Shown: piece after piece, positions 35,676 through 64,000 of the stretch
Layout of the letters: the number at the start of each line of letters is the position of its first letter
Numbering within the stretch: the first letter of the stretch is position 1
Source of the DNA: Mycobacterium sp. ITM-2016-00316
GTDB taxonomy: Bacteria > Actinomycetota > Actinomycetes > Mycobacteriales > Mycobacteriaceae
Length of the DNA stretch: 64,000 nt
Direction of reading: 5' to 3'
Assembly (NCBI RefSeq): GCF_002968335.2
Contig: NZ_CP134398.1
Location: 4,464,001-4,528,000 of the forward strand
Position numbers and translations under genes: made by a program
Notes under the pieces: model-generated
What the model was told of the DNA's origin: nothing
The model's input: only the letters and a program-made list of their open reading frames with translations
The model's database searches: none

Positions 35676-36938
35676 GTGAGTACGCAATTGGACGGTCACG
35701 GCTGGCGGGTACTCGCACCCTTCAAGATCCGCGAGTACCGACTGCTGATCGCCGCCGTGTCCATCACGATCCTGGCCGAGGGCATGTGGGCCGTGGTGAT
35801 GGCCCTTCAGGTGATCGCCCTGGACAACGATCCGGCGACATTGTCCCTGGTGGCAGCGTGTCTCGGTGGTGGCCTGGTGGCTTTCGTCCTCGTCGGCGGC
35901 ATCGCCGCCGACCGGATCCCACAGCGCTCCATCATCATTGCGGTGGAAGTCGTCAATCTCGTTGCAGTGGCAACGGTGGCCGCACTCTCATTGCTGGGCA
36001 CCCTGCGGGTGTGGCACATGGCTGTGGCGGCTGCACTGCTCGGCATTGCCGCCGCTTTCTTCTTCCCCGCCTACAGCGCCTATCTGCCGCGGATCCTGCC
36101 ACCCGAGCAACTGCTGGCCGCCAACGGCGTCGAAGGGGTGATGCGCCCGGTTCTGCAACGGGCCGCCGGGCCTGCGGCCGCAGGTCTGCTCATCGGCGCA
36201 ACATTCCCCGCGGTCGGCACCGTGGTGGTGGCCGTCCTGTTCGCGACCAGCCTGATCCTGCTGGTCGCCACCCGCGGCGTGCGAACCCGGACGGAAGCGC
36301 CGGTCACGTCGAACCCGCTGACCGATCTGCGCGAGGGCTTTCGGTTCATGGTCCGCACACCGTGGCTGCTGGCCACCCTGCTGTTCGCCAGCGTCTTCGT
36401 GCTGGTGGTGATCGGCCCCATCGAGGTGCTGTTGCCTTTCATCACCGGCGAGCGGTTCGAACACGGTGCTCAGATGTTCGGGTTCGTGCTGGCCGCTTTC
36501 GGCGTCGGCAGCGCACTCGGCGCGCTCGGGGTGTCGTCCTGGCAGCTGCCACGACGCTACTTGACGGTGATGATGGTCATGTGGGGTGCCGGTTCGCTGC
36601 CGCTGGTGGTGATCGGTTGGACGCATTCGTTCGCATGGATGATGGTGGCCAGCTTCCTGGTCGGCATCACCGACGGGGCAGGCATGGTCATCTGGGGCAC
36701 GCTGTTGCAGCGCCGGGTGCCACCGGCGATGCTGGGCCGAGTATCCAGCCTGGACTTCTTTGTATCGCTGGCCTTCATGCCCGTGTCGATGGCCATTGCC
36801 GGGCCGCTGTCGAAGGTGATCTCGATGGAAGTCATCTTCCTGGTCGCCGGTATGACGCCGGTGGTGGTGGCCACGGTTGCCTACCTGTCGGCGCGCATGT
36901 ATCGCGACGAGATCGAGCATCCGCTCGACCGGTGGTGA
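35676..36938 (+). CDS. MFS transporter, EntS-like
   Basis: GTG 35676 opens a 420-aa protein with 12 helices, starting MSTQLDGHGWRVLAPFKIRE. The DHA3/EntS style is seen in the long N-terminal amphipathic lead FKIREYRLLIAAV and in the loop GGIAADRIPQRS (motif A variant). The stretch FPAYSAYLPRILPPEQLLAANGV is typical of this subfamily, which exports siderophores and drugs. It is the first gene of the accessory region, on the same strand as the monooxygenase gene that follows after about 140 nt. Confidence 0.85.
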   Translation: MSTQLDGHGWRVLAPFKIREYRLLIAAVSITILAEGMWAVVMALQVIALDNDPATLSLVAACLGGGLVAFVLVGGIAADRIPQRSIIIAVEVVNLVAVATVAALSLLGTLRVWHMAVAAALLGIAAAFFFPAYSAYLPRILPPEQLLAANGVEGVMRPVLQRAAGPAAAGLLIGATFPAVGTVVVAVLFATSLILLVATRGVRTRTEAPVTSNPLTDLREGFRFMVRTPWLLATLLFASVFVLVVIGPIEVLLPFITGERFEHGAQMFGFVLAAFGVGSALGALGVSSWQLPRRYLTVMMVMWGAGSLPLVVIGWTHSFAWMMVASFLVGITDGAGMVIWGTLLQRRVPPAMLGRVSSLDFFVSLAFMPVSMAIAGPLSKVISMEVIFLVAGMTPVVVATVAYLSARMYRDEIEHPLDRW

Positions 36939-37011
36939 ACCGGCCGCCGAACAGCGGCGACGGCATGCCAACGCGGACCGGACGATCCACGGCGCCAGCG
37001 CCAGGATCCCG

Positions 37012-37026
37012 GCATCACCCGCGTAA
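37012..37026. promoter_or_regulatory. Shared 15-bp element, copy 1 (GCATCACCCGCGTAA)
   Basis: Fits GCAWYACCCGCGTAA, found also at 41891-41905 and 61221-61235, each time in the non-coding region upstream of a monooxygenase or binding-protein gene of the accessory cluster. It lies about 57 nt before ATG 37083. Its core is a near-palindrome TYAC-CCGC-GTAA. Confidence 0.5.
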
Positions 37027-37082
37027 TTCCCGCGGTACCAGGACGACACCGACCAGAAACGCCTGTCTACTTGTCTTGGCAC

Positions 37083-38381
37083 ATGACCAACAAGTTCCAT
37101 CTGGGGTGGTTCCTGAACTTCGTCGCCGACGAATGGGACGGGACCTGGGGTGACGGGGCGCGTGATTTCACCGGAGAGTTCTATGTCGAGATGGCCCGCG
37201 ATCTGGAGCGCGCGAAGTTCGACTACGTGCTCATCGAGGACAAGCTGATGGTGTCGACGGCCTACGGCGGCACCATGGAGTACGACCTCAAGCACGGTGT
37301 GAACCCCAAACACGATCCGGTGCCACTGGCAGTGTTGATGGCCTCCGCCACTTCACGGCTCGGCGTCATCCCGACGATGTCGACCAGTTTCTACCCGCCA
37401 TTCCTGCTGGCCCGACTCTGTAGCACGGTGGACCACATCGCCCGCGGACGGTTCGGCTGGAACGTGGTCACCTCCGCCGAGGACCGGGCAGCCCAGAACT
37501 TCGGGCTCGACGAGCTGTATGAGCACGACGAGCGCTACGCACGCGCCAGCGAATACCTCGAACTCTGCACCAAGCTGTGGGAGTCGTGGGAACCGGACGC
37601 GATCGAGCGCGACCATCTGACCGGGACGTACGCCAACTACAAGAAGGTGCACACCGTAGATTTCGCGGGCAAGTACTACAAATGCCGCGGTCCGCTGAAC
37701 ACCGCGCCCTCCCCGCAGTACCGCCCGACCATCGCTCAGGCCGGCGCCTCTCCCCCCGGCCGTGAGCTCGCCGCGCAGCACGCCGACACCATCGTGGCAC
37801 CCGCCAACGGCATCCAGGCGATGAAGGACTACCGCGACGACATCCGGAATCGCATGGCGGCAAACGGTCGGGACCCGGCGGATTGCAAGGTGTTGTACCT
37901 TGTTTCGCCAATCGTGGGCGACACCACCGAAGAGGCTCTGGCGAAGCAGGAGCGCTGGTTCAACGATCCGCTGTACATCGAGTACATGCTTGCCGAGATC
38001 TCGTCGATCACCGAGATCGACTTCTCCACCTTCGACCTCGACAAGCCATTGCCGGACGTGTCGACCAACGGGGAGCGGGGCTCCCTGGAGAGCTTCATGG
38101 CCCGCGGAAAGGACAAGACGCTGCGTGAACTGGTCACCGGCAGTGGTCTTTCCGGAAATGTCCAGTTCGTCGGAACACCTGCCGAAGTCGCCGAGGAAAT
38201 GGGCTCGGTGATGGAACAGGTCGGCGGCGACGGCTTCCTGATCACCAGCCCGGTGATGCGCCTGAACCGTCGCTACGTCACCGAGATCACCGACGGGCTG
38301 GTGCCGGAACTGCAGAAACGCGGTCTCACCCGCTCCGACTACACCACCGCGATGCTTCGCGATCACCTGCGCGAGTTCTGA
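37083..38381 (+). CDS. FMNH2-dependent monooxygenase, NtaA/SnaA/DszA family (copy A)
   Basis: ATG 37083 (MTNKFHLGWFLNFV) gives 432 aa. This is a class C two-component flavin monooxygenase with a bacterial luciferase-like TIM barrel, using FMNH2 from a separate reductase. Family landmarks are ERAKFDYVLIEDKL, TSFYPPFLLARLCSTVDHIARGRFGWNVVTS, AAQNFGL and the C-terminal GGDGFLITSP. Members open N-C or S-C bonds (nitrilotriacetate, dibenzothiophene sulfone, alkyl sulfones). The exact substrate cannot be read. It is separated from the RibBA-like gene by 2 nt, so both are made together. Confidence 0.9.
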   Translation: MTNKFHLGWFLNFVADEWDGTWGDGARDFTGEFYVEMARDLERAKFDYVLIEDKLMVSTAYGGTMEYDLKHGVNPKHDPVPLAVLMASATSRLGVIPTMSTSFYPPFLLARLCSTVDHIARGRFGWNVVTSAEDRAAQNFGLDELYEHDERYARASEYLELCTKLWESWEPDAIERDHLTGTYANYKKVHTVDFAGKYYKCRGPLNTAPSPQYRPTIAQAGASPPGRELAAQHADTIVAPANGIQAMKDYRDDIRNRMAANGRDPADCKVLYLVSPIVGDTTEEALAKQERWFNDPLYIEYMLAEISSITEIDFSTFDLDKPLPDVSTNGERGSLESFMARGKDKTLRELVTGSGLSGNVQFVGTPAEVAEEMGSVMEQVGGDGFLITSPVMRLNRRYVTEITDGLVPELQKRGLTRSDYTTAMLRDHLREF

Positions 38382-38383
38382 GC

Positions 38384-39487: not shown

Positions 39488-39532
39488 CACAAGAAGTGAT
39501 GTAACCCTGGCGAAGCACGCTCGGCTGACCGC

Positions 39533-39542: not shown

Positions 39543-39586
39543 CACTGCTTCTATGTGCGAGCGGGGGTTGTGAAGATCGGAGCACC

Positions 39587-40393
39587 ATGGTGTCAGCAGG
39601 CGAACCGTACGGGGTGTGCAGGCCGAGGTTCCACCACGCCGGTTCGACCCGTCCTGAGGTGATCTACCAACGACAGCGCCACAGCCCCGATCGGCTGAAC
39701 AACTCGCAGCGGCGCACCTATGACCTCCTGCGGTCGACCCTCATGTCGACCGGCAGGAATCTGCTTCTCGTGGAACACGAGCTCACCGAAGCGCTTTCGG
39801 CGAGCCGCAGCACGGTCCGGGCGGTGCTGCAGCAACTGGCGCGTGAGGGTCTGGTCACCCGCGAGCCCAAGAAGGGGACCCGTGCCGCCGGTTCGCTGCT
39901 CCTGCCCATAGACGAGCTCAAGACGATGGATCAGCTCGCCCGCGAGCCGTCTGCCCCTCTCGAAACCCGCACGATCGAATGCCGGCCGGTTGGCCGCCCG
40001 CCGGTGGTGTGCGACCGACTGCGGCTGCCCGACGGGTGGGACGTCCTGATGATCGAAAGCCTCATGGTGCACGACGGGATCACGATCGGGGTCACGGTGG
40101 GCTACATCGCCGTGAGCGAGAGTCAGTCGCACGACATAGATGTGGAGGGGCAGGACGTCATCGCGATATTGGAGCGGCAACTCGGGATTCGCATAGGCCC
40201 CAGCCGCACTACGGTCGGCGCCGTCACCGCCGACGAACAGACCGCCGACCTGATGAGTGTCGACGTCGGTGCCCCGCTGATCTGGCTCGAGGACGTCCTC
40301 GAGGACCACAACGGACAGCCACGGGCACTCTCACAGCTCCGGCTGCGCGGTGACCGAGTCGCGTTCAGCGCCATGGCCCGTCGCACCACGTGA
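39587..40393 (+). CDS. GntR/UTRA (HutC-type) transcriptional regulator, copy 1
   Basis: ATG 39587 is preceded by CGGAG. The 268-aa product has an N-terminal winged helix (about 45-105) with SPDRLNNSQRRTYDLLRSTL, ALSASRSTVRAVLQQLAREG and TREPKKGTRA, and a UTRA effector domain (about 120-265) with the typical LERQLGIRIGPSRTTVGAV and LIWLEDVLEDHNGQPRALSQ. A paralogue lies at 42037. UTRA domains bind small ligands, commonly substrates of the adjacent pathway, so these regulators are the best candidates for sensing the cluster's substrate. It converges on the monooxygenase at 40398 with 4 nt between stops. Confidence 0.9.
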   Translation: MVSAGEPYGVCRPRFHHAGSTRPEVIYQRQRHSPDRLNNSQRRTYDLLRSTLMSTGRNLLLVEHELTEALSASRSTVRAVLQQLAREGLVTREPKKGTRAAGSLLLPIDELKTMDQLAREPSAPLETRTIECRPVGRPPVVCDRLRLPDGWDVLMIESLMVHDGITIGVTVGYIAVSESQSHDIDVEGQDVIAILERQLGIRIGPSRTTVGAVTADEQTADLMSVDVGAPLIWLEDVLEDHNGQPRALSQLRLRGDRVAFSAMARRTT

Positions 40394-40397
40394 ACGT

Positions 40398-41714
40398 TCA
40401 GAAGCTCGACAAATTTCCCCGCAGCTGCGCGGATTCGTAGGAGGTCCGCGCCAGGCCGCGTGCCTGTAGCTCAGGTATCAGGCCGTCGGTGATCTCGGCA
40501 ACCACGCGCCGGTTGAGCGGGCCGGCCACGAAAAGCACGCCGTCACCGCCAACTTCGCCCATCATCTTGCCCAGCTCGTCAGCCACCTCGGCAGGAGTCC
40601 CCACTGGCTCGATGGCATGGGTTTGGGCCGCGACTTCTCGCAGGGTGCGCCGCGGATCCCCCAGACGCGCAGCCAGCGAACTCTGGTGTCCGTTGGTCTC
40701 GAATGTCGCTGCCAGGTCCCGCAACGGGGTGTCCACGTCGTAGGGCGAAAAGTCGATGTCGGTGATGAAGCCGAGGCCCGCCAGTCCGGCCTCGGGGTTC
40801 TCCCATACCTCGTCGTCGTGGCGCTTCTTGCGGTCCACCGCTTCGGCGTGGGTCTCCCCCAGATACGGCGTACACAGGAACAACACCTTGACCTCGGCCG
40901 GATTCCGCCCCGCTTCCGCCGCGCGGGCGAGGACGTCGTCGCGGTACTCCTTCATCTCCTCCACCGACGTCGCGGCGGCGATGATGCTGTCCGCATTCTT
41001 GGCGGCGAAGGCACGCCCGGCCGACGATCCGCCGGCCTGGACCAGTGCCGGCCGCCCCTGCGGCGGCGGCGCGGTGTTCAGCGGCCCACGACTGCGGAAG
41101 AACCGGCCGTTGAAGTCCACCGGATGGACCTTGGTGTGGTCGGCGAACATCTCGGCCTCCAGATCGGCGACCACGGCGTCGGCGTCCCACGAAGACCACA
41201 GTGCGCACACGGCATCGGTCATCTCCTGTGCCATCTCGTAGCGCAGGTCGTGTGCGGGCTGGCCCTGTTTGCCGTAGTTCTGCGCCGCCCGGTCCGAGCT
41301 GCCCGTCACGATGTTCCACCCCGCCCGGCCGGCGGACAGGTTGTCCAGCGTCGCGACCAATCGGGCCAGCTGGTACGGCTGATACTCGGTCACCGCGAGC
41401 GTGGGTACGACGCCGATGCGGCGCGTCGCGCTGAGCATCACGGTGGCCAGCACCGCCGGATCGTGCTTCGGCACCGCACGCGCATTGTGGAGGTAATACC
41501 GCATCGAGTTCTCGTATCCGTCGGGCACATAGGCGGAGTCCTCGATGATCAGGTAGTCGAAGCAGGCCCGTTCGAGCGCGCGGATGAAGTCGACGTGAAA
41601 CTCGCCGTTCATCCAATCCGTGGCGGCCGTGCCGCGCCATTGACTCTTCCAGTCGTGCACACCGAAACCGTTGCCCAGGAACCAGGCCAGGTGCATCCTC
41701 GGGTCACCATCCAC
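40398..41714 (-). CDS. FMNH2-dependent monooxygenase, NtaA/SnaA/DszA family (copy B)
   Basis: I start at GTG 41714, which has GGAGG six nt upstream; the Arg-rich reading further upstream is unsupported. The 438-aa product begins VDGDPRMHLAWFLGNGFGVH. It shows ERACFDYLIIEDSAYV, the flavin-site ARLVATLDNLSAGRAGWNIVTGS, GRFFRSRGPLNTAPPPQGRP and GGDGVLFVAG. It is most like copy G at 58060 (both have AWNIVTxSSDRAAQNYG-type sequence) and less like the 37083 and 49988-53997 group. Divergent from gntR copy 2 with 320 nt between. Confidence 0.88.
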   Translation of the reverse strand: MDGDPRMHLAWFLGNGFGVHDWKSQWRGTAATDWMNGEFHVDFIRALERACFDYLIIEDSAYVPDGYENSMRYYLHNARAVPKHDPAVLATVMLSATRRIGVVPTLAVTEYQPYQLARLVATLDNLSAGRAGWNIVTGSSDRAAQNYGKQGQPAHDLRYEMAQEMTDAVCALWSSWDADAVVADLEAEMFADHTKVHPVDFNGRFFRSRGPLNTAPPPQGRPALVQAGGSSAGRAFAAKNADSIIAAATSVEEMKEYRDDVLARAAEAGRNPAEVKVLFLCTPYLGETHAEAVDRKKRHDDEVWENPEAGLAGLGFITDIDFSPYDVDTPLRDLAATFETNGHQSSLAARLGDPRRTLREVAAQTHAIEPVGTPAEVADELGKMMGEVGGDGVLFVAGPLNRRVVAEITDGLIPELQARGLARTSYESAQLRGNLSSF

Positions 41715-41995: not shown

Positions 41996-42040
41996 ATGAG
42001 GATCTGTAGTCGCCAGTTCTGGACCGGCGGTGTGCGATGA
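41996..42040 (+). CDS. 14-codon leader peptide MRICSRQFWTGGVR, coupled to gntR copy 2
   Basis: ATG 41996 has the best Shine-Dalgarno of the region (CAGGAGG, about 6 nt upstream). It encodes 14 residues and stops at TGA 42038-42040, overlapping the regulator's ATG 42037 (ATGA). The regulator itself has no separate ribosome-binding site, so its translation should depend on the leader. A Cys codon at position 4 within an MRxCSR start resembles actinobacterial leader peptides of sulfur genes, which respond to cysteine supply; this parallel is inference. Confidence 0.55.
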   Translation: MRICSRQFWTGGVR

Positions 42041-42807
42041 GGCAGGGCCCGCCCCGGCCCGAGCGACCGGAAACTGTTTACCAGCGCAACCGCCAGACTC
42101 CGGACCGCCTCAACAACTCGCTGCGACGGACCTACGACCTGCTGCGCTCAACTCTGCAGAACGGACAGGGCGATCAGTTCCTGGTGGAGGGCGAGCTCAT
42201 CGATGCGCTGTCGGCGAGCCGCAACACGGTCCGCGCGGTGCTGCAACAACTGGCCAAGGACGGCCTGGTGACCCGCAGCCCCAAACGCGGCACCCGCTCG
42301 GCGGCGGCAGTGAAGCTGCGCATCAACCAGCTCTCTCCTGTCAAGGAATTCGGCGGCGACGCCAGCATCCGCGCTGAGCTCAAGAACCTCGAGTACCGTC
42401 CCCTCGGCGACCTCCGTCTGGTGCGCGAGCGATTGCGACTCCCGTCCGACTGGACGGTGCTCATGATGGAGTCACTGATCGTGCGGGAGTCCCAGCCGTT
42501 GGGCATCTCGGTGAGCTACATCGCGCTGCACCCCGACCAGTCCCGCGACCTCGAGTTCAACGAGCCAGACCCGATTCTCTTCCTGGAGCGGCAACTCGAC
42601 GTCAGGATCACCAGCAGTCGCACCACGATAGGTGCCACCGCGGCCGACGAGCAGTCCGCAGCGCTGGTCGGCATCGAGCAAGGCGCACCGATGATCTTCC
42701 TGGAGGACATCCTCGAGGATGCGAGCGGGCAGCCTCGGGCGCTGTCCCAATTCCGGATGCGCAGCGACCGCATTGCGTTCACAGCGAGTGCGTCGCGCTC
42801 GGCCTGA
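42037..42807 (+). CDS. GntR/UTRA (HutC-type) transcriptional regulator, copy 2
   Basis: This 256-aa protein starts MRQGPPRPERPETVYQRNRQ and overlaps the leader ORF. Winged helix: PDRLNNSLRRTYDLLRSTLQ, LSASRNTVRAVLQQLAKDGL. UTRA domain: LERQLDVRITSSRTTIGATA and MIFLEDILEDASGQPRALSQ. It is paralogous to the regulator at 39587 over the whole length; the effector-domain differences suggest a second ligand. It converges on the ABC exporter with 9 nt between stops. Confidence 0.92.
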   Translation: MRQGPPRPERPETVYQRNRQTPDRLNNSLRRTYDLLRSTLQNGQGDQFLVEGELIDALSASRNTVRAVLQQLAKDGLVTRSPKRGTRSAAAVKLRINQLSPVKEFGGDASIRAELKNLEYRPLGDLRLVRERLRLPSDWTVLMMESLIVRESQPLGISVSYIALHPDQSRDLEFNEPDPILFLERQLDVRITSSRTTIGATAADEQSAALVGIEQGAPMIFLEDILEDASGQPRALSQFRMRSDRIAFTASASRSA

Positions 42808-46635: not shown

Positions 46636-46706
46636 TCCATGGCACAGCGTCTGCGATTCCGGCCGAAAACGCCGCTGTTGCGGTCGGATTGCGCTACCGG
46701 TGCGCC

Positions 46707-48599: not shown

Positions 48600-48745
48600 G
48601 GTTCCTCCTGTTGGGGACTGCATGGGACGTCTCTGGTGCGAAGTTCACACGCACCCGGTATCGCCAACAGTTCGATCACGTTGCGGGGGGATTGCGCGTC
48701 GGGCCTTGAGGTTTCACCGGTCGTCACATTCGTCGCGCCGTGCGG

Positions 48746-54031: not shown

Positions 54032-54130
54032 TCAGACCGTGTGTGCGTGTCGGGGCGAATGCGCCACGGTGGCGCCGATATTGCGCCGACATCTCGGACA
54101 TTCCGCCGGCCCGATCACGCCGCTCGTCAT
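54032..54130 (-). CDS. Small ORF with a CPRC knuckle between the ATPase and copy E genes (32 aa)
   Basis: ATG 54130 overlaps the ATPase stop (ATGA), and TGA 54032 is 35 nt before copy E. The peptide contains AECPRCRRNIGATVA and PRHAHTV. The RRNxxATVA part is encoded in a block that also occurs upstream of both binding-protein genes, where it reads RRNRKATVA and RRNRKTTTV. It could be a translated leader or just an open frame across a DNA site; I cannot decide. Confidence 0.4.
   Translation of the reverse strand: MTSGVIGPAECPRCRRNIGATVAHSPRHAHTV
54062..54089. promoter_or_regulatory. Shared 28-bp upstream block, copy 1
   Basis: CGCCACGGTGGC, 5 nt, TATTGCGCCGA. It matches 57989-58016 at 23 of 28 bases, with all differences in the 5-nt middle, and more weakly 61183-61210. 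It sits 65-92 nt upstream of monooxygenase copy E. Confidence 0.5.
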
Positions 54131-56115: not shown

Positions 56116-56234
56116 GAAGATACCTCTCCTCTGGATGGGCACCGCGATCCGAAACCGACCACGTGATGTTTGAAGTTGTTGTGCAACAGCGGTTTCTTGC
56201 CATCAAGCCCGCCATGCGCTGCGCGCGTGCGTTG

Positions 56235-57833
56235 CTAGGCGCGTCTGATGACCCCGGCGTCGAAGATGTAGGGCAGATAGGAATTGCCGACGAACCCGTC
56301 GATCTGTGCCTGGGTGATCGAGGTATCCATCCGTCGACACAGCGGCACCCAGAGCGCCTCGTCCTGAATGGTCTCGGTGATCTGCAGGTATATCTCGTTG
56401 GTCTGGGCGTCGGTCGGTTTGGTGATCGCCACGTCCATCAGGCGGTCAACCTCGGGGTTGCCGTACTGAAAGTAGTTGAGCGGCTTGGCTCCGGTGCGCA
56501 GGAAGATCCGCATCGCGGTGTCCAGATGCAGCGCGTCGCCGCCAATGCCGGCGACCATGAGGTCGGGCCGTTTCTCGGCGGGCTGGTTGGCCAAGTCGAA
56601 GGACTCGGCGCTGGGCATGGCGCGCACGGTGATCTCCAGGCCGGTCGGGGCCAGCTGGGTCTGGACCAGTTCGGCCACCTGCTGGCCGGGCGCACCGTAG
56701 GAGGTCACCCAGGCCAGGTCCAGCTTCTTGGACGGCAACGACGGCACGATCGCCTCCAGTGGCCCGGTGTCGACCACCGGGTCGAAAGGCGCCAGCCCCG
56801 CCGGGAACATGTTCTCCGGCCAGAAGTTCGCCTGCATCGGGGTCAAACCCTGGAACGCGGTCTCGACGATCGCGGAGCGGTCCAGGGCGGTCATCATCGC
56901 CTGCCGCACCGCCTTGTCGGCGAACACGCCGGCGCCGAAGTTCATCCAGAGCACGATCACCGTGGAGCCGGGCACCGCGATCGTTTTGAACTTCGCGTTC
57001 TGCTTGTAGCTGAGTACGTCGGGGATCGCGAAGCCCTTGGCCACCAGATCGAAGGCACCCTGATCCAACTGCAGTTTCTGCGTCGCAATCTCGGGAACGA
57101 TCTCGATCCGAACGCTCTCGAAATAAGGCTCTTCACCCCAATAGCCGTCGAACCGCTCCAACGTGTAATGGCTGCCGGGCACGAACTCCTTCATCACATA
57201 CGGCCCCGTCCCGGCATCGTGGGTCTTGAGCCACTCCTGCGCCAAATCCCCACCAACCGCGTTGGATTCGACCGCGGTCGGACTCACCGCGAACATCTGC
57301 CACGGGCACGCCGCGTAATGCAGGAACGCATTGTTGGGCTCCTTGAGCGTCACCACCAACGTCGTCGGATCCGGCGCCTCGGACTTGGCGATACCCGCCA
57401 CCATGTAGGCCGGCCCCTCGTTGACCGCGAGCCGACGCTCGAAGCTCTTCAGCCAGGCGGCCGCATCGGCCGCGGTGCCGTCATGGAACGTCACATCGGG
57501 CACCAAATCGAAGGTGTAGGTCAACTGATCGTCGGAGACCGTCCAGGACTTCGCCAGCCCGGGGATGATCTCCGAGGTGCCCGACTTGTAATTGACCAGG
57601 CCCTCGTAGCAGGACTTCATGACCTGCACACCCTCGCCCTCGTACATGATGTCGGGGTCGGGCACCTGCATGTCCTGCAGGAACGGCATCCGCAACGTCA
57701 AGTTGCGCGCACCGTCCGTACTGGCCTCACCGCCACACGCAGCGATCAGATTGGCCAGCGCGAGTCCGCCGACGGTCAGTCCACCGACCTTCAGAAAGCC
57801 ACGCCGGTCCAGGGTAATTGGGGTACGAGTCAC
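56235..57833 (-). CDS. Family-5 solute-binding lipoprotein, Tat-exported (SBP1)
   Basis: GTG 57833 with GAGGAGA upstream gives 532 aa. The leader has a twin-arginine motif LDRRGFLKVGG (Arg10-Arg11) and a lipobox LIAAC (Cys33), so it should fold in the cytoplasm, cross by Tat and be lipid-anchored. The mature part is a SBP_bac_5 fold; PGLAKSWTVSDDQLTYTF and DVTFHDGTAADAAAWLKS are family signatures. It is a near duplicate of SBP2 at 59462, differing mostly in residues about 285-460 and at the C-terminus. It delivers the solute to the DppBC pore. Confidence 0.93.
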   Translation of the reverse strand: MTRTPITLDRRGFLKVGGLTVGGLALANLIAACGGEASTDGARNLTLRMPFLQDMQVPDPDIMYEGEGVQVMKSCYEGLVNYKSGTSEIIPGLAKSWTVSDDQLTYTFDLVPDVTFHDGTAADAAAWLKSFERRLAVNEGPAYMVAGIAKSEAPDPTTLVVTLKEPNNAFLHYAACPWQMFAVSPTAVESNAVGGDLAQEWLKTHDAGTGPYVMKEFVPGSHYTLERFDGYWGEEPYFESVRIEIVPEIATQKLQLDQGAFDLVAKGFAIPDVLSYKQNAKFKTIAVPGSTVIVLWMNFGAGVFADKAVRQAMMTALDRSAIVETAFQGLTPMQANFWPENMFPAGLAPFDPVVDTGPLEAIVPSLPSKKLDLAWVTSYGAPGQQVAELVQTQLAPTGLEITVRAMPSAESFDLANQPAEKRPDLMVAGIGGDALHLDTAMRIFLRTGAKPLNYFQYGNPEVDRLMDVAITKPTDAQTNEIYLQITETIQDEALWVPLCRRMDTSITQAQIDGFVGNSYLPYIFDAGVIRRA

Positions 57834-57988: not shown

Positions 57989-58016
57989 CGCCACGGTGGC
58001 TTTTCTATTGCGCCGA
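57989..58016. promoter_or_regulatory. Shared 28-bp upstream block, copy 2
   Basis: CGCCACGGTGGC, TTTTC, TATTGCGCCGA. It is followed by an inverted repeat TGCGCC-N9-GGCGCA (58009-58029). The block and the dyad lie about 160-195 nt before the SBP1 start. Confidence 0.5.
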
Positions 58017-58059: not shown

Positions 58060-59385
58060 TCAGAACTCGAGCAGGTTGTCGCGGAACATTTCGTAGCGAT
58101 AGCGTTCCCGGGTGAGGCCGCGTTTCTGCAGCTCCGGCACCAGCCCGTCGGTGATCTCGCTGATCGAACGACGTGTCAGGACGTCCTGGGTGATCAGGAA
58201 GCCGTCGCCACCGACCTCGGCCATCACCTCACCCATCTGCTCGGCAACCTCTGCCGGCGTACCGAGGAACTCCACCCGCTGCCCGGCGCCGTACGCCGAG
58301 TTCGAGGCCACCTCCCGCAGCGTCCGGTCGAGGTTTTGTCGAACGAACGCCGCCAGCGAACTCTGGTGACCGTTGGTGACCATCTGGTCGGCGAGCTCAC
58401 GGATGGGGACGTCGAGATCGAACACCGAGAAGTCGATATCGGTCGCGTACCCCATCCCGGCGAGCCGGAACCGCGGATCGACGGCGGCGTCGGCGATCAT
58501 CTGTTCCTTGCGCTCCACCGCGTGCTGATGCGTCTCGCCGAGGATGGGAGAGACCAGGAAGAGCACCTTGACGTCGTCGGCCTTGCGCCCGTGGCCCTCG
58601 GCACGGGCGCGGACGTCATCGCGGTACTCCGTCATCGCCTCGACCGTCGTGGCCGACGCGATGATCGAGTCGGCGCACCGCGACGCGTATGCCCGGCCCT
58701 TCTCCGATCCGCCGGCCTGGACGATCACCGGTCGACCCTGTGGGGATCGCGCGGAGTTGATCGGTCCTCGCGACTTGTAGAAGCGGCCGTTGAAGTCAAC
58801 CGGGTGCACCTTGTCGGGATCGGCGAAGATGCCGTCCTGGTCGACGACCATCGAATCCGGCTCCCAGGACTCCCAGAGCTGGGTGACGAGATCGGTGAAC
58901 TCCTCGGCCATGTCGTAGCGGATGTCGTGGTCCGGTTGCCTGTCATGCCCGTAGTTCTGGGCGGCGCGGTCGGAACTGGCGGTCACCATGTTCCAGCCTG
59001 CGCGGCCGCCAGACACATGGTCCATCGTCGACACCAGCCGCGCCAGGAGGTACGGCGGGTACTCGGTGATCGCCAGCGTCGTCACGATGCCCAGCCGCTC
59101 GGTGTTCTGGGTGAGGATGGACGCCAGCACCGCGGGGTCGAATTTCGGTACCGCGTAGGCGTTCTCGAGATAGAAGTCGTGCTTGCCCTCCCAGGCGTCA
59201 GGAACGAACGACGAGTCCTCCAGAATGAAGTAGTCGAAGCAGGCCCGCTCCAGCGATCGCGCCATGTCCACGTAGAAATCGGGCAGCATGCCCTCGGATT
59301 TGTGCGTACCGATCCACTGGTCGCGCCAGCCATGAACCCGGTAGCCGTTCATGAACCAACCGAGATGGAATTTCAGGGCGGGCAT
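58060..59385 (-). CDS. FMNH2-dependent monooxygenase, NtaA/SnaA/DszA family (copy G)
   Basis: ATG 59385 (GAGGAGA upstream) gives 441 aa starting MPALKFHLGWFMNGYRVHGW. Landmarks: ERACFDYFILEDSSFVPDAW, LLARLVSTMDHVSGGRAGWN, AAQNYGHDRQPDHD, GRFYKSRGPINSARSPQGRP and GGDGFLITQDV. It groups with copy B (40398). It stands between the two binding-protein genes, so SBP2, this enzyme and SBP1 are read in that order from one strand. Confidence 0.9.
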   Translation of the reverse strand: MPALKFHLGWFMNGYRVHGWRDQWIGTHKSEGMLPDFYVDMARSLERACFDYFILEDSSFVPDAWEGKHDFYLENAYAVPKFDPAVLASILTQNTERLGIVTTLAITEYPPYLLARLVSTMDHVSGGRAGWNMVTASSDRAAQNYGHDRQPDHDIRYDMAEEFTDLVTQLWESWEPDSMVVDQDGIFADPDKVHPVDFNGRFYKSRGPINSARSPQGRPVIVQAGGSEKGRAYASRCADSIIASATTVEAMTEYRDDVRARAEGHGRKADDVKVLFLVSPILGETHQHAVERKEQMIADAAVDPRFRLAGMGYATDIDFSVFDLDVPIRELADQMVTNGHQSSLAAFVRQNLDRTLREVASNSAYGAGQRVEFLGTPAEVAEQMGEVMAEVGGDGFLITQDVLTRRSISEITDGLVPELQKRGLTRERYRYEMFRDNLLEF

Positions 59386-59461
59386 CCGTGTCTCCTCATA
59401 TCGTCCGGGCATTCACCGTCAGGGTTTGCCTTCAGGGTTGACCGAAAGTGCCGGGGCGTGC

Positions 59462-61060
59462 TCACACGCGGGTGATCTTGTTCGGTGCAAAGACATAGGG
59501 AATGTACGAGTCCTGCACGACCCCATCGATATAGGCCTGCATCACCATGTTCTGCGGTATGCGGCACAGCGGTACCCAGAGCGCCTCGTCCCTGATGATC
59601 TCGGTGATCTGCAGGTACACAGCGTTGGTCTCGGCGGCGGTGGGCTTGGTGATCGCCTCGTCCATGAGCCGGTCGACCTCGGGGTTGCCGTACTGAAAGG
59701 CGTTGAGCGGCTTGGCTCCGGTGCGCAGGAAGATCCGCATGGCGGTGTCCAGATGCAGTGCGTCACCGCCCATCGTGGCCACCAGCAGGTCGGGCCTGCG
59801 CTCGGCCGGCTGATTGGCCATGTCGAACCACTCGGCGCTGGGCATGGCGCGCACGGTGATCTCCAGCCCGGTCGGGGCCAGCTGTGTCTGGATCAGTTCG
59901 GCCACCTGCTGGGCGGGCGCACCATTGGACGTCACCCAGGCCAGGTCGAGCTTCTTGGACGGTAATGTCGACACGATCTCTTCCAGTGGCCCGAGGTCGA
60001 CCGACGCATCAAAGGGCGCCAGGCCTGCCGGAAACATGTTCTCCGGCCAGAAGTTCGACTGCACCTCGGTCAATCCCTGGAACGCGGTCTCGACGATCGA
60101 GGCGCGATCCAGCGACGTCATCATCGCCTGCCGCACCGCCTTATCGGCGAACACACCAGCATCAAAGTTCATGTAGAGCGCCATCATCGACGCGCCTGTG
60201 GTGGTGATGGCCTTGAACTGTGCATTCTGTTTATAGGTGAGGACGTCGGGGATGGCGAAGCCCTTGGCCACCAGATCGAAGGCACCCTGGTCGAGCTGCA
60301 GTTTCTGCGTGGCAATCTCGGGAACGATCTCGATGCGGACGCTCTCGAAATAGGGCTCTTCACCCCAGTACCCGTCGAACCGCTCCAACGTGTATTGACT
60401 ACCCGGCACGAACTCCTTCATCACATACGGTCCGGTCCCCGCATCGTGGGTCTTGAGCCACTCCTGAGCCAAATCACCACCGACGGCGTTGGTTTCGACC
60501 GCGGTCGGACTCACCGCGAACATCTGCCACGGGCACGCCGCGTAATGCAGGAACGCATTGTTGGGCTCCTTGAGCGTCACCACCAACGTCGTCGGATCGG
60601 GCGCCTCGGACTTGGCGATACCGGTCACCATGTAGGCCGGCCCCTCGTTGATCGCCGCCCTGCGCTCGAAGCTCTTCAGCCAGGCCGCCGCATCGGCCGG
60701 GGTGCCGTCATGGAACGTCACATCGGGCACCAGATCGAAGGTGTAGGTCAACTGATCATCGGAGACCGTCCAGGACTTCGCCAGCCCGGGGACGATCTCC
60801 GAGGTGCCAGACTTGTAATTGACCAGGCCCTCGTAGCAGGAGCGCATGACCTGCACACCCTCGCCCTCGTACATGATGTCGGGGTCGGGCACCTGCATGT
60901 CCTGCAGGAACGGCATCCGCAACGTCAAGTTGCGCGCACCGTCCGTACTGGCCTCACCGCCACACGCAGCGATGAGATTGGCCAGCGCGATTCCTCCCAC
61001 GGTCAAACCACTGACCTTCAGAAAACCACGCCGGTCCAGGTTTATCGGGGTACGGGTCAC
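59462..61060 (-). CDS. Family-5 solute-binding lipoprotein, Tat-exported (SBP2)
   Basis: GTG 61060 (GAGGAGA upstream) gives 532 aa, the same length as SBP1. Twin-arginine motif LDRRGFLKVSG and lipobox LIAAC are the same. The first 280 residues are almost identical to SBP1; later segments differ (FKAITTTGASMMALYMNFDA against FKTIAVPGSTVIVLWMNFGA; WFDMANQPAERRPDLLVATM against SFDLANQPAEKRPDLMVAGI), as does the end CRIPQNMVMQAYIDGVVQDS. These stretches line the ligand cleft in family-5 proteins, so a shared ATPase/permease may receive two ligands. Confidence 0.93.
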   Translation of the reverse strand: MTRTPINLDRRGFLKVSGLTVGGIALANLIAACGGEASTDGARNLTLRMPFLQDMQVPDPDIMYEGEGVQVMRSCYEGLVNYKSGTSEIVPGLAKSWTVSDDQLTYTFDLVPDVTFHDGTPADAAAWLKSFERRAAINEGPAYMVTGIAKSEAPDPTTLVVTLKEPNNAFLHYAACPWQMFAVSPTAVETNAVGGDLAQEWLKTHDAGTGPYVMKEFVPGSQYTLERFDGYWGEEPYFESVRIEIVPEIATQKLQLDQGAFDLVAKGFAIPDVLTYKQNAQFKAITTTGASMMALYMNFDAGVFADKAVRQAMMTSLDRASIVETAFQGLTEVQSNFWPENMFPAGLAPFDASVDLGPLEEIVSTLPSKKLDLAWVTSNGAPAQQVAELIQTQLAPTGLEITVRAMPSAEWFDMANQPAERRPDLLVATMGGDALHLDTAMRIFLRTGAKPLNAFQYGNPEVDRLMDEAITKPTAAETNAVYLQITEIIRDEALWVPLCRIPQNMVMQAYIDGVVQDSYIPYVFAPNKITRV

Positions 61061-61224
61061 GGGCGTCGTCTCCTCAGTCTGCGCTGCACGGGGTCTGCGC
61101 TGCTCGGGTTGGGGATGGTTCTGGCGGTGGATGTTTCGCTGCTGACCTCGAATACAAATCGCTGCACATGACGGCTCGGGGTCACCGTCGTGGTTTTTCT
61201 ATTGCGCCGCACCGTTCGGCGCAT
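61057..61224 (-). other. Upstream ORF overlapping the SBP2 start (55 codons)
   Basis: ATG 61224 to TGA 61057, the stop overlapping GTG 61060 (GTGA). It starts MRRTVRRNRKTTTVTPSRH, parallel to the ORF before SBP1. The remaining 35 codons are unrelated between the two. Coding status is uncertain. Confidence 0.35.
61183..61210. promoter_or_regulatory. Shared 28-bp upstream block, copy 3 (diverged left half)
   Basis: The right part GTGGTTTTTCTATTGCGCCG matches 57996-58015 at 19 of 20 bases; the left part is weaker. It lies 123-150 nt before the SBP2 start. Confidence 0.45.
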
Positions 61225-61235
61225 TACCCGCGTAA
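61203..61235. promoter_or_regulatory. TGCGCC-N9-GGCGCA dyad plus shared 15-bp element upstream of SBP2
   Basis: The dyad is 61203-61223 and the element GCATTACCCGCGTAA is 61221-61235, overlapping by 3 nt. The element here contains a perfect TTAC-CCGC-GTAA palindrome. The non-coding gap between SBP2 and the MFS gene contains nothing else I recognise. Confidence 0.5.
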
Positions 61236-61252
61236 CGCGTGCGCGGCGGCGC

Positions 61253-62533
61253 TCAGATGGGTTCGAGCACGACCGGCGGGTTGGGCCCCAAGAGATCCCG
61301 CCGGCTGCGCAGCACGATCACGCCCAGCACCACCAAGCCGACCAAGGACGAGGTGATCAGTGCCGCCCGGGTGCCGAACAGCTCCGCGCCGAGACCGATG
61401 ACTGCCATCCCGATGGGTAGCGCGCCGATGGCTGTGCTGAGCACCCCCAACGCGACACCACGCTCGTGGGGGCCTGCCGACTCGATGGCCAACAGGCTCT
61501 GCATCGAACCGAACCCGGCCTGGCCGATACCGGCCACGAACAGCGCGACGAAGGCGACGGCGAGCACCGGGACCGTCGCGAAGACCAGCAGCCCCAGCAG
61601 CGCGATGGCCGATCCGCAGGCGAACACCGTGCCGTAGCGGTACAGCTGCCTGGTGCTGAGCACCACCCCGGCGGTGATCTGGCCGAGACCGGGCGCCGCG
61701 GCGAGCGCGCCGGCGAGCACCGCGCTCTGCGCGAAATCCTCTGCCACCACCGGTATCAGCGGAATGTAGCCGAACATGCACAGGTTCATCACCACCGTGA
61801 TGACCAGCATCGCGACGAACCGCCGGCTGCGTCGCAACAGGCTCGCGCTTGTCGCGACCTGATTGCGCAGCGACACCGAACCCGCCGCCAGCGGGGTGGC
61901 GGCATATCGGGGCTGGGGTACGAAAGCGAGGAGCACAGCGGAGGCCACGAGCATCAGGCCCATCCCGGCGAATCCGGCGCCCATACCGAGCTGCTGAATC
62001 AAGATTCCGCCGACGAGAGTGCCGAACATCGCCGATCCCGCCTGCGAAGTCGCCTCGATGGTCATCGCCCGGCTGGCCAGGCGCGGTCCCACCGTCTCGT
62101 AGATGAGCGGACGCTGGGCGGTCATGTTGACCAGGCCGCCGATGCCGACGAAGAACATGAACGGGAAGGTCATCCACACCTCGACCCGGCCGGACTGCAC
62201 CGCGGCGAACATCAGGAACTCGACGGGGATGAGCAGCAGTTGCACGACCAGGATCAGCCGCTTGCGTTCGAACCTGTCGCTGATCACGCCTGCGAAGAAT
62301 CCGCCGAGCAACATCGGAACGAAGAAGAGGGCACCGACCACCTGGTTGAGGACCGGCGAGTCCGCGATCTGGGTCAACAGGTAGCTGGTCGTGAACAGCA
62401 CGCCCCATCGGGTGGTGTGCCAGAGCAGGGAGCTGACGAACAGGTTGCGGTAGCCGGGCACCCGCATCAGGGCGCGCAGCCGCTCGCCGTCGGCCGCGTC
62501 ACCGGGGACCGCGATCAGGTCGTCGGCGGTCAA
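61253..62533 (-). CDS. MFS transporter
   Basis: I start at TTG 62533, whose TTGA overlaps the stop of the preceding MFS gene; the reading that continues another 324 nt upstream lies antisense-style inside that gene and is not real. The 426-aa protein has 12 helices. Motif A variant: GVISDRFERKRLIL. Helices 4-5 carry AQRPLIYETVGPRLASRAM and GTLVGGILIQQLG. It resembles the EntS-like gene at 35676 in style. An alternative ATG at 62467 would give 404 aa. Confidence 0.85.
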   Translation of the reverse strand: MTADDLIAVPGDAADGERLRALMRVPGYRNLFVSSLLWHTTRWGVLFTTSYLLTQIADSPVLNQVVGALFFVPMLLGGFFAGVISDRFERKRLILVVQLLLIPVEFLMFAAVQSGRVEVWMTFPFMFFVGIGGLVNMTAQRPLIYETVGPRLASRAMTIEATSQAGSAMFGTLVGGILIQQLGMGAGFAGMGLMLVASAVLLAFVPQPRYAATPLAAGSVSLRNQVATSASLLRRSRRFVAMLVITVVMNLCMFGYIPLIPVVAEDFAQSAVLAGALAAAPGLGQITAGVVLSTRQLYRYGTVFACGSAIALLGLLVFATVPVLAVAFVALFVAGIGQAGFGSMQSLLAIESAGPHERGVALGVLSTAIGALPIGMAVIGLGAELFGTRAALITSSLVGLVVLGVIVLRSRRDLLGPNPPVVLEPI

Positions 62534-63819
62534 GAGCCGGCCCCCGTCCCAGCCGCGGTGCGGCGCTGCAGGAACACGCCGAGCAGGACCGGGAGTGTCA
62601 GCACCGCTGTCCCGAGGGCGAGGGCCGTGAATCCCGCCCAGCTCATGATGACCCCACAGACGATGCTGGCCAGCCCACCGCACACTGCGGTGGTGAGATC
62701 GGCGGTGCCCTGGACCGGCACCCGGTACTCCCAGGACACGTGTTCCATCAGCAGACTCGAGCCGCCGATGAGGGCCAGCGTCCAGCCCACCCCGAGCGCG
62801 AACATTGCCACGAACATCAGCGGCACGCTGTCCGAGGACAGTGCCGACAACCCGCACGCGGCCAGCAGCACCAGCGATCCAGACCGCAACGCGGCCAGTC
62901 TCCCTCGGCGGTCGGCGTAGCGGCCGACCAGCGGGCTGAACGCGAACATTCCGGCGATGTGCACCGAGACCACGAGCGAGCTCACCGCCTCGTGATCGTG
63001 CGCCTTCATGTCGATCGGCGCCATCGCCATCACCCCGACCATCGCCGCCTGGGCGGTGACCATGGCCAGCAGGGCCAGACGCGCCGTCGGTGACGCGGCG
63101 ATGGCGCGTGCGGACTCCCTCAACCGGATCGGCCGCTGCCCGGGGCTCACCCCGTGTTCGGCGGCCGACACCAACAGGGGGTCTGGACGCAGCCGGATCG
63201 CCACATTGACTGCGGCGCAGGCGAAGAAGAAGGAGCTGAACAACCAGGGGCCCGCATAGAGATCCAAACCGAACCAGGCGGCACCCAGATGCTCGGCCGG
63301 GACCACCAGCGTCGGCCCGAACACGGCCCCGAAGGTCGACGCGAACAGGATTCGCCCCATCGCGCGGCCGCGCTGCTCCGGCTCGGCCAGATCGGTCGCC
63401 GCATAGCGGGCCAGCAGGTTGGTCGCCGACCCCGCCCCGTAGAAGAGCAGGCCGAGCAGGAAGACTGCGAGGACCGACAGTTGCACGCCGAGGCAGGCGA
63501 TCACACCGCCGACGGTCGCCAGTCCGTAGCCCAACTGCATGCCGGCGCGCCGCCCGTATCGGCGCATCACCCGCGACAGGATCTGCGCCATCGCGCCCGC
63601 ACCGGCCGTGACCGCCGCGGTCGAGACACCCACCCAGGGCGTGTCGACGCCGACGATGTCCTCCACCACGAACCCGCCGACGGTGATGGCGGCCCCCAGG
63701 GCGGCCGCTCCGACCACCTGGCCGATGACCAGGACGCGCAGGGTCCGTCGCTGCAGCACGGCCCGCTCGTCGATTGACAGGGGGAACGCCGCAGAGATCG
63801 CACCGACCTCGTGTGTCAT
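62530..63819 (-). CDS. MFS transporter, multidrug-like
   Basis: The 429-aa protein begins MTHEVGAISAAFPLSIDERA and has 12 helices. Helices 2-3 are linked by SRVMRRYGRRAGMQLGYG, an MFS motif A-like basic loop, and the central loop by GRYADRRGRLAALRSG, the repeated motif A of the second half. It starts 11 nt after monooxygenase copy H, and its stop overlaps the next MFS start. Two consecutive MFS genes of different subfamily suggest efflux of two products or a heteromeric pair; the former is more usual. Confidence 0.86.
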   Translation of the reverse strand: MTHEVGAISAAFPLSIDERAVLQRRTLRVLVIGQVVGAAALGAAITVGGFVVEDIVGVDTPWVGVSTAAVTAGAGAMAQILSRVMRRYGRRAGMQLGYGLATVGGVIACLGVQLSVLAVFLLGLLFYGAGSATNLLARYAATDLAEPEQRGRAMGRILFASTFGAVFGPTLVVPAEHLGAAWFGLDLYAGPWLFSSFFFACAAVNVAIRLRPDPLLVSAAEHGVSPGQRPIRLRESARAIAASPTARLALLAMVTAQAAMVGVMAMAPIDMKAHDHEAVSSLVVSVHIAGMFAFSPLVGRYADRRGRLAALRSGSLVLLAACGLSALSSDSVPLMFVAMFALGVGWTLALIGGSSLLMEHVSWEYRVPVQGTADLTTAVCGGLASIVCGVIMSWAGFTALALGTAVLTLPVLLGVFLQRRTAAGTGAGS

Positions 63820-63830
63820 CGGCCGCCGGC

Positions 63831-64000
63831 TCAGAACTCGCGCAGCGTCTGCCGCAGCGTCTGCTGGGTGTACTCGGTCCTGGTCAGGCCGAGGCGCTGC
63901 AGCTCGGGCACCAGGCCGTCGGTGATCGACGAGATGTAGTTGCGGTTCAAATCCCAGCCCGGCTTCATGATCAGGAAACCGTCACCGCCGATCTCCTCCA
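63831..64000 (-). CDS. FMNH2-dependent monooxygenase, NtaA/SnaA/DszA family (copy H, C-terminal 55 codons only)
   Basis: The gene runs out of the window; only the last 55 codons are seen. They read EEIGGDGFLIMKPGWDLNRN and end TQQTLRQTLREF before TGA 63831-63833. This is the C-terminal GGDGF region of the same family, most like copy C (GGDGFLIAKPGWDLSRKY). It shows that the cluster extends beyond 64 kb. Confidence 0.88.
   Translation of the reverse strand, partial: EEIGGDGFLIMKPGWDLNRNYISSITDGLVPELQRLGLTRTEYTQQTLRQTLREF

What the first reader, a model, noticed from the sequence alone, without database searches (positions are those of the whole stretch)
35676..64000. An undescribed-looking catabolic island: seven DszA/NtaA-type monooxygenases around one split DppABCDF importer
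Seven class C flavin monooxygenases, two duplicate Tat-lipoprotein binding proteins, one fused DppDF ATPase, one DppBC pair, four MFS proteins, an exporter, two GntR/UTRA sensors and a broken RibBA-like protein occur together with almost no unrelated genes. The importer parts are dispersed between enzyme genes. The layout suggests one uptake engine serving several related S- or N-containing substrates, each with its own oxygenase. Enzyme families and gene order are seen directly; the shared pathway and substrate class are inference. I do not recall a described system with this composition.
Basis: partly seen in the sequence, partly recalled or inferred. Interest (0 to 1): 0.85.

Follow-up and report, generated by a model that had tools for sequence, protein, structure and literature searches.

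The report
Eight-oxygenase scavenging island in mycobacteria
A soil mycobacterium carries one block of genes with eight related oxygen-using enzymes, one import pump and shared control sites, and some of these enzymes appear to keep copying their common core from each other while holding on to separate substrate-facing parts.

Summary
The cluster is real, larger than reported, and behaves as one system. It runs from about 37.07 to 69.41 kb (window coordinates), 5.4 kb beyond the window. It holds 8 NtaA/DmoA-family (TIGR03860) monooxygenases, 8 of the genome's 13, with 3 binding proteins, one DppB/C/DF importer, 2 flavin reductases (outside the window), 3 MFS proteins, an ABC exporter, 2 GntR/UTRA regulators and a RibBA-like protein. 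The MFS at 35676 is Tet(V)-type and probably not a part. Related islands occur in 15 mycobacterial, 3 Streptomyces and 1 Trebonia genome among the loci fetched; 10 of 198 genomes searched in the genus match binding protein SBP1.

New here: (1) 10 of 13 intergenic gaps carry the core GCGYAAT; 9 of 12 copies fit the GlnR (nitrogen regulator) spacing A(C/T)-n9-AC. (2) LLM3/4/5/7 show gene conversion: the FMN-binding core groups largely by genome, two C-terminal patches largely by enzyme class. SBP1/SBP2 look similar.

Best reading: a nitrogen-scavenging oxygenase array. Substrates are unknown, the GlnR link is inferred, and one positive control failed. The closest solved enzymes act on sulfur compounds, so sulfur remains a serious rival.

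The parts
37071..38381 (+). LLM1, NtaA/DmoA-family FMN monooxygenase (core group)
   Evidence: PF00296, TIGR03860 412.6 bits
38384..39487 (+). RibBA-like protein: DHBP-synthase domain, degenerate GTP cyclohydrolase II domain
39587..40393 (+). GntR/UTRA regulator 1
40398..41696 (-). LLM2, FMN monooxygenase (ORF runs to 41897; start at 41696 chosen by the conserved N-terminus)
42037..42807 (+). GntR/UTRA regulator 2 (55% identical to regulator 1)
42817..46635 (-). Fused two-half ABC exporter, 1272 aa
46707..47702 (-). DppB-type permease
47715..48623 (-). DppC-type permease
48746..49951 (-). MFS protein a
49988..51304 (-). LLM3, FMN monooxygenase
51341..52657 (-). LLM4, FMN monooxygenase; core nearly identical to LLM5
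52687..53997 (-). LLM5, FMN monooxygenase; modelled
54127..56142 (-). DppDF-type double ATPase
56235..57833 (-). SBP1, family-5 binding protein
58060..59412 (-). LLM6, FMN monooxygenase
59462..61060 (-). SBP2, family-5 binding protein (86.5% identical to SBP1)
61253..62500 (-). MFS protein b (ORF runs to 62857; MFS domain starts at residue 140, so the start is set inwards)
62530..63819 (-). MFS protein c
63831..64000 (-). 3' end of LLM7, FMN monooxygenase (core group); continues to 65183 beyond the window. Beyond it: FMN_red 65195-65824 +, Flavin_Reduct 65779-66321 +, SBP3 66327-67988 -, LLM8 68074-69411 -
37021..37038 (+). Shared element GCGYAAT-n6-GNNAC before LLM1
46677..46694 (-). Shared element between DppB and the exporter gene
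48680..48697 (-). Shared element before DppC
54069..54086 (-). Shared element before LLM5
57996..58013 (-). Shared element before SBP1
61190..61207 (-). Shared element before SBP2 (one mismatch to GCGYAAT-n6-GNNAC)

Best explanation
The island is a regulated scavenging system. Three related binding lipoproteins feed one DppBC-DF importer with several related organic molecules. Inside the cell, two flavin reductases supply reduced FMN to a set of up to eight two-component (group C) monooxygenases. Each oxidises its own substrate and breaks it at a heteroatom, most likely a C-N bond as NtaA and EmoA do, and so frees usable nitrogen; MFS proteins and an ABC exporter remove leftovers. A shared 11-bp-periodic operator, possibly read by the nitrogen regulator GlnR and tuned by the two GntR/UTRA proteins, switches the parts on together. 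The array evolves at two speeds: segmental gene conversion keeps the FMN-binding core of LLM3/4/5/7 (and the first half of SBP1/2) alike within a genome, while selection holds C-terminal patches that set specificity. Shown by sequence: gene content, recurrence as a unit, the shared element, the conversion signature.
For: Recurrence of the gene set in 19 genomes. FMN contacts of BdsA: 5 of 6 identical in LLM5; V, H, R, Y kept in 8 of 8 oxygenases. Flavin reductases inside the island. Core GCGYAAT 12 times in 1,833 intergenic bases against 7 in 32,656 coding bases, 0 of 1000 shuffles reach 12; A(C/T)-n9-AC in 9 of 12 copies against 2 of 14 elsewhere in the same 74 kb, p 0.004, the GlnR consensus of M. 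smegmatis (PMC3662644 passages). Conversion: LLM4/LLM5 116/122 fourfold sites alike in codons 50-285 while LLM4 and its four mycobacterial orthologs tested have 73/115 to 97/119; core and patch trees disagree, 5 of 5 AU tests reject the swapped clades; independent profile without the window genome; SBP pair.
Against: A matrix of nine island sites scores at background upstream of four Amt-family and two NirB-type genes of the same genome, so the element is not shown to be what GlnR reads at known targets. Three of 12 copies of the core do not fit the GlnR spacing. The nearest solved relatives are DszA (three of four oxygenases searched) and DmoA (one), sulfur enzymes; EmoA is the weakest of the long-chain relatives listed. 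No gene for later steps of a nitrogen pathway was recognised. The BdsA catalytic serine is S in only five of eight. 27 of 34 same-genome pairs do not reach p <= 0.01 in the run test. Patch 1 of LLM4 is no more alike between Mycolicibacterium and Streptomyces (0.59-0.67) than between paralogs in one genome (0.63).
Confidence: 0.45

Rival explanations
1. Sulfur scavenging: the oxygenases cleave C-S bonds of sulfones, sulfides or similar compounds (DszA/DmoA/MoxC type) and deliver sulfite or thiols during sulfate limitation.
For: Best solved relatives are DszA for LLM1, LLM6 and LLM8 and DmoA for LLM5. FMN_red-type reductases commonly serve sulfur oxygenases (recalled).
Against: Best scores are only 233-268 bits and the BdsA substrate residues that could be mapped are mostly different (1 of 5 the same). 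No DszB/DszC-type or sulfonate-uptake gene was found by Pfam among the island proteins. The element fits the nitrogen regulator's consensus.
Confidence: 0.28
2. Uptake, oxidative inactivation and export of natural products (toxins or antibiotics of soil competitors) rather than nutrition.
For: Three MFS proteins and a large ABC exporter beside the oxygenases; Streptomyces carry the island too.
Against: An importer with three binding proteins would bring the toxin in. The exporter is not seen in several minimal islands.
Confidence: 0.12
3. Mosaics arise by exchange of specificity cassettes between copies rather than by homogenisation of the core.
For: Sharp borders between identical and divergent stretches would look the same for a single pair.
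Against: Patch classes keep the same map position in the expanded islands and cluster largely by class across genera, while cores cluster largely by genome. One S. scabichelini and one vinylchloridicum gene do not fit either scheme cleanly.
Confidence: 0.15
4. The near-identical copies are redundant and kept for gene dosage; the divergent patches are just fast-changing surface.
For: Concerted evolution tied to dosage is known for amoCAB (PMC6053082, passages).
Against: The patches are not fast between close orthologs: 0.93-1.00 between window and hippocampi LLM3, LLM4 and LLM7. Without the window genome, orthologs exceed same-genome paralogs by 0.27-0.29 in the three sharpest 15-codon stretches.
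Confidence: 0.1

Closest known systems
EDTA/NTA degradation system of Chelativorans BNC1 (EppABCD importer, EmoA FMN monooxygenase, EmoB reductase, IdaA)
   Same: Cluster-C binding protein with a type I ABC importer, co-located with a group C FMN monooxygenase and its flavin reductase (PMC7312458, passages).
   Different: One oxygenase and one binding protein there, eight and three here; EmoA is only distantly related (126-157 bits); no IdaA-like oxidase was recognised here.
DszA/BdsA of the 4S desulfurisation pathway
   Same: Same family; 5 of 6 FMN contacts kept in LLM5.
   Different: 4 of 5 mappable substrate residues differ in LLM5; no DszB/DszC partners found; importer present.
Rv1936-Rv1941-type cluster (name recalled; a cluster of matching make-up is in this genome, L095)
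   Same: RibBA-like protein with a degenerate cyclohydrolase domain beside a luciferase-like oxygenase and a Flavin_Reduct protein.
   Different: Shorter oxygenase of another subfamily, hydrolase and SDR, no importer in the genes scanned.
Concerted evolution in prokaryotes (for example amoCAB of Nitrosomonadales)
   Same: Paralogs in one genome more alike than orthologs (PMC6053082, abstract and passages).
   Different: The cases in the passages seen concern near-identical copies; here homogenisation stops at patches that stay largely class-specific.

Membership tests
NtaA/DmoA family FMN-dependent monooxygenase (TIGR03860) | score over the curated cut-off 279.7 | tested here: met
   8 of 8, 382-418 bits
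Group C FMN monooxygenase | FMN-contact residues of BdsA | tested here: met
   LLM5 5 of 6 (L230 is A); V, H, R, Y in 8 of 8, S in 5 of 8
EDTA/NTA (Emo/Epp) system | importer, FMN monooxygenase and reductase together | tested here: met
EDTA/NTA (Emo/Epp) system | EmoA/NtaA as closest relative and an IdaA-type oxidase | tested here: not met
   DszA or DmoA score higher in 4 of 4 searches; no oxidase of that type among Pfam hits of the island proteins
4S desulfurisation (DszABC) | DszB and DszC partners; BdsA substrate residues | tested here: not met
   no such partners in Pfam results; 1 of 5 mapped substrate residues the same in LLM5
KPN_01854/KPN_01858 cluster (TIGR04028, TIGR04027) | score over cut-off | tested here: not met
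   SBP1 62.5 and SBP3 71.7 against 468.5; LLM8 25.2 against 412.9 (SBP2 not scanned)
GlnR regulon | AC/T-n9-AC box upstream | tested here: met
   9 of 12 copies of the island core; 2 of 14 elsewhere in 74 kb
GlnR regulon | same element at known target genes of the genome | tested here: not met
   island matrix at background before 4 Amt and 2 NirB genes; upstream DNA was taken from the domain match, not the exact start
GlnR regulon | GlnR binding and GlnR-dependent expression | not testable with these tools
   needs EMSA/ChIP and expression data
Bifunctional RibBA | both domains over cut-off and cyclohydrolase loop present | tested here: not met
   NF006803 439 against 569; TIGR00505 101.9 against 205.85; loop missing
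DHBP synthase (RibB) | domain score and acidic active-site loop | tested here: inconclusive
   TIGR00506 201.8 against 177.45, but the loop differs from the canonical one in the 5 island copies aligned; roles of the residues recalled
Concerted evolution by gene conversion | same-genome paralogs more alike at silent sites than orthologs | tested here: met
   for several pairs, not all

The most novel reading that the evidence does not exclude
A bacterial 'repertoire' system: an importer-oxygenase array in which segmental gene conversion keeps renewing a common catalytic chassis (the FMN-binding core; the first half of the binding proteins) while class-specific substrate patches are protected. 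It is passed between mycobacteria and Streptomyces as a unit and run as one regulon through a GlnR-like operator to mine a family of related nitrogen compounds. The degenerate RibBA paralog would be a repurposed, non-biosynthetic partner of such oxygenases.
Probability: 0.33. Interest if true: 0.82.

Novelty: new variant of a known kind. Interest (0 to 1): 0.6.

Why it matters
Oxygenases of this family attack pollutants, chelators and organosulfur compounds, but many have no known substrate. An island in which eight of them share one importer, two reductases and one control element gives a handle: one growth condition should switch the set on, and one deletion should reveal the substrate family. 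The pattern of a converted core with protected patches points to the residues that may set specificity, and offers natural near-chimeras (LLM4 and LLM5) for testing it. If GlnR reads the element, nitrogen starvation in these mycobacteria would include a large oxidative scavenging programme that I did not find described in the papers searched.

Tried and rejected
Rejected: the Tet(V)-type MFS as a part; RibBA as a fresh pseudogene; membership in the KPN_01854 cluster; a HutC-type operator GTNTANAC (recalled) as the shared site: 1 hit in the window, outside the island, 2.45 expected; exact spaced palindromes shared between gaps: none.

Tried without result: paper searches for the composition (listings and abstract starts only, apart from the papers whose passages I cite) showed no description of this island, in an open-licence library only. 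DHBP-synthase catalytic residues in print: not found. Rv1936/Rv1940: two listings, not read. Comparison of the right flank through the epimerase gene gave relatives of 58-69% identity at best per genome and no clear empty site; I did not map their surroundings. No fold search of the LLM5 model ran.

Rows dropped: one search left out two Trebonia rows and the RYN159, OAS707, sphagni and rhodesiae DSM 44223 'LLM4' rows, which sit on other branches. Searches kept nine genomes (29 rows). One search left out the window genome and one S. scabichelini row of unclear class; that row was also left out of the LLM4 class. Oxygenase ORFs covering 85% or less of the query were not used (among them partial copies in hippocampi, vanbaalenii and S. 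violaceoruber). The SBP counts are from three genomes with both copies; M. pyrenivorans was left out because of its lesion.
Full report
What is there. The window is bases 4464001-4528000 of a 5.99 Mb single-contig genome; most of the nearest named loci are Mycolicibacterium/Mycobacterium. The island starts with LLM1 (37.07 kb) and runs past the window's end to LLM8 (69.41 kb). In order: LLM1, RibBA-like, GntR1, LLM2, GntR2, ABC exporter, DppB, DppC, MFSa, LLM3, LLM4, LLM5, DppDF, SBP1, LLM6, SBP2, MFSb, MFSc, LLM7, two flavin reductases, SBP3, LLM8. All eight oxygenases pass the TIGR03860 cut-off. The genome has 61 PF00296 matches and 13 TIGR03860 genes over the cut-off, 8 of them here. The gene left of LLM1 is a Tet(V)-type MFS gene, which is not the best match of any ORF in the related loci mapped.

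Recurs as a unit, patchily. A scan of named genomes with LLM5 gave 68 loci. Those mapped show oxygenases with importer parts in 19 genomes at high identity: 15 Mycolicibacterium/Mycobacterium, 3 Streptomyces (one cut at a contig end, without DppDF) and Trebonia kvetii; looser relatives (about 50% for the oxygenase, 23-43% for the importer) occur in Rathayibacter, Williamsia, Subtercola and others. A minimal form (M. sphagni, M. rhodesiae DSM 44223, BK086 and others) has LLM8, SBP3, the two flavin reductases, DppDF, LLM7, permeases, MFS proteins, a GntR, RibBA-like and LLM1. The expanded form adds SBP1/2, LLM2-6 and often the exporter. The oxygenases fall into eight ortholog groups plus a few extra branches. 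In the genus, 10 of 198 genomes (the window's included) match SBP1 at E <= 1e-120. In 394 genomes of the class, LLM7 at E <= 1e-170 is found in 2, one being the window's own. Identity to the two longer Streptomyces islands is 81-86% for DppDF, LLM4-6 and the third oxygenase and 61-77% for the SBP, permeases, MFS and exporter; with patchy presence this suggests lateral transfer, which is inference.

Chemistry. Solved relatives of the four oxygenases searched (LLM1, 5, 6, 8) are DmoA, DszA/BdsA, YtnJ/MoxC, LadA, NtaA, HcbA1, riboflavin lyase and EmoA; DszA is best for three and DmoA for one, at 233-268 bits. Of six FMN contacts of BdsA (PMC5819316, abstract and passages), five are the same in LLM5 (V132, S134, H151, R154, Y155). 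V, H, R and Y are kept in 8 of 8, the serine, called the nucleophile in BdsA, in 5 of 8. Of five BdsA substrate residues that could be mapped only V248 is the same in LLM5. So these are very likely FMN oxygenases with other substrates. The binding proteins scanned are NikA/GsiB-like at low similarity. The known system with the same logic is EDTA uptake and oxidation in Chelativorans (PMC7312458, passages).

RibBA-like protein. The genome has three DHBP-synthase genes: a full RibBA, the island copy, and one in a cluster with a luciferase-like oxygenase, a Flavin_Reduct protein, a hydrolase and an SDR (L095), which matches my recollection of Rv1936-Rv1941. The island copy and that third copy both lack the cyclohydrolase loop of the full RibBA; the Williamsia copy keeps it. 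In the five island copies aligned the acidic loop of DHBP synthase also differs from the canonical one (E. coli numbering from the 1g57 alignment). That it tops up flavin supply is therefore uncertain.

Shared element. Ten-base words common to several gaps led to the core GCGYAAT. It occurs 12 times in 1,833 bases of the 13 gaps longer than 60 bases (in 10 of 13), 7 times in 32,656 coding bases and 7 times in the first 33 kb of the window; shuffles average 0.77, the largest 7, and 0 of 1000 reach 12. The core was chosen from these gaps, so this count alone overstates the case. In 13 related loci (12 genomes; two loci overlap), intergenic density is 2.2-12.4 per kb against 0.06-0.45 in coding DNA; these loci share ancestry, so they are not independent. 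Aligning 53 sites gives CG-GCGYAAT-n6-GCMAC-n6-G with G at positions 2, 13 and 24, an 11-bp period. M. smegmatis GlnR sites have AC/T-n9-AC with essential adenines and spacing (PMC3662644, passages) and the box t/gTAAC-n6-Gc/aAAC (PMC10704036 Table 2, passages). Nine of 12 window sites fit AC/T-n9-AC, against 2 of 14 copies of the core elsewhere in the same 74 kb (Fisher p 0.004) and 0 of 12 in 97.6 kb of further loci of this genome, 20 kb of which lie inside the window. This second half was not used to choose the core. Genome-wide, GCGYAAT-n6-GNNAC has 23 matches, 8 in the island region (7 intergenic, 1 inside MFSb). Against GlnR: a matrix of nine island sites scores 1.3-8.7 upstream of four Amt-family and two NirB-type genes, below the 95% background mark of 9.9; two of the Amt genes have a one-mismatch M. 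smegmatis-type box instead. The element is well supported; its reader is a hypothesis.

Two-speed evolution. LLM4 and LLM5 of the window agree at 116/122 fourfold sites in codons 50-285, while LLM4 agrees with its orthologs at 74/119 (AZCC_0083), 76/114 (JS60), 73/115 (vinylchloridicum) and 97/119 (hippocampi), and LLM5 with its orthologs at 63/119, 77/112 and 62/111. In codons 286-312 and 346-415 the two paralogs are 0.63 and 0.60 identical in protein; the four LLM4 orthologs 0.81-1.00 and 0.86-0.99, the three LLM5 orthologs 0.70-0.81 and 0.86-0.89. LLM4/5 of two Streptomyces, LLM3/5 of AZCC_0083 and LLM5/7 of vinylchloridicum show the same contrast; LLM7 of the window does not share in it (0.53-0.58 at fourfold sites). 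Between Mycolicibacterium and Streptomyces the patches are less alike: LLM4 0.59-0.67 and 0.75-0.79, LLM5 0.74-0.81 and 0.74-0.76 against the window. Core trees group largely by genome or close genomes (window LLM3 sits with hippocampi and vanbaalenii LLM3; LLM7 mostly stays a class), patch trees largely by class across both genera, with vinylchloridicum LLM3 and one S. scabichelini gene out of place. Five of five AU tests reject the swapped grouping: LLM5 and LLM4 classes in the core (p 1.4e-5, 8e-47), same-genome sets in the patches (p 1.5e-4, 6e-43, 7e-45); the sets were chosen after seeing a first tree, which the test's own note warns about. A silent-run test (1000 shuffles, no correction for many pairs) finds 7 of 34 same-genome and 5 of 372 between-genome pairs at p <= 0.01 (Fisher p 9e-6). 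With the window genome left out (26 within-genome, 61 ortholog pairs), fourfold identity in codons 76-180 is 0.71-0.81 within against 0.48-0.67 between, and the largest ortholog-over-paralog excess in protein is at 286-300, 361-375 and 391-405 (+0.27 to +0.29), with smaller peaks at 16-30, 61-75 and elsewhere (+0.12 to +0.16). On the AlphaFold2 model (mean pLDDT 82, 19 sequences; 73-76 in part of patch 1) patch 1 is the helix pair 285-296/299-313, and patch 2 runs from helix 354-361 through strands 366-370 and 390-393 to helix 400-416. In BdsA the insertion IS5 before strand 8 forms the substrate entrance; its substrate residues H316 and V372 map to 312 and 362, within the patches. That the patches correspond to IS5 and what follows is my reading.

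SBP1/SBP2. In residues 31-270 the hippocampi copies agree at 119/121 fourfold sites (orthologs with the window 73/112 and 67/112), but are 0.50 and 0.55 identical in protein in 271-300 and 481-532. The window pair (95/114) is intermediate and the vanbaalenii pair (82/107) weak, its patch 271-300 (0.67) being no different from its orthologs (0.63-0.73). In M. pyrenivorans both genes carry the same frame-shifting tandem duplication, a sign of conversion or, less likely, of an assembly fault.

Conclusion. The best working model is a co-regulated scavenging array, nitrogen somewhat more likely than sulfur. The conversion pattern and the shared element are the new points. No paper describing this composition appeared in the searches named, which cover an open-licence library only.

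Noticed in passing
L041:6667-9743 and the matching place in L043: Inside the islands of M. vanbaalenii BC8_1 and M. hippocampi, between the flavin reductases and LLM7, lies a three-gene insert: Asp/Glu/hydantoin racemase, NCS1-type permease and GntR/FCD regulator (Pfam on L041 only; L043 by sequence cluster). It hints at cyclic nitrogen compounds.
   Followed up: partly
L029:2546-4215 and L029:5971-7643: Both binding-protein genes of M. pyrenivorans carry the same frame-shifting tandem duplication.
   Followed up: partly
L095 (G000:C1:3941001-3957000): A second RibBA-like paralog with a degenerate cyclohydrolase domain sits beside another luciferase-like oxygenase and a flavin reductase: such RibBA-like proteins recur next to flavin oxygenases.
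   Followed up: partly
L050: Williamsia sp. 1135 has a RibBA with an intact cyclohydrolase loop next to several related oxygenases and distant Dpp importer parts.
   Followed up: no
L025:3258-6156: In M. rhodesiae JS60 one SBP1-like gene is split: residues 1-330 and 336-532 match places about 1.3 kb apart.
   Followed up: no
window 35676-36938: Tet(V)-type MFS gene directly left of the island (710 bits against a cut-off of 640); described only.
   Followed up: no
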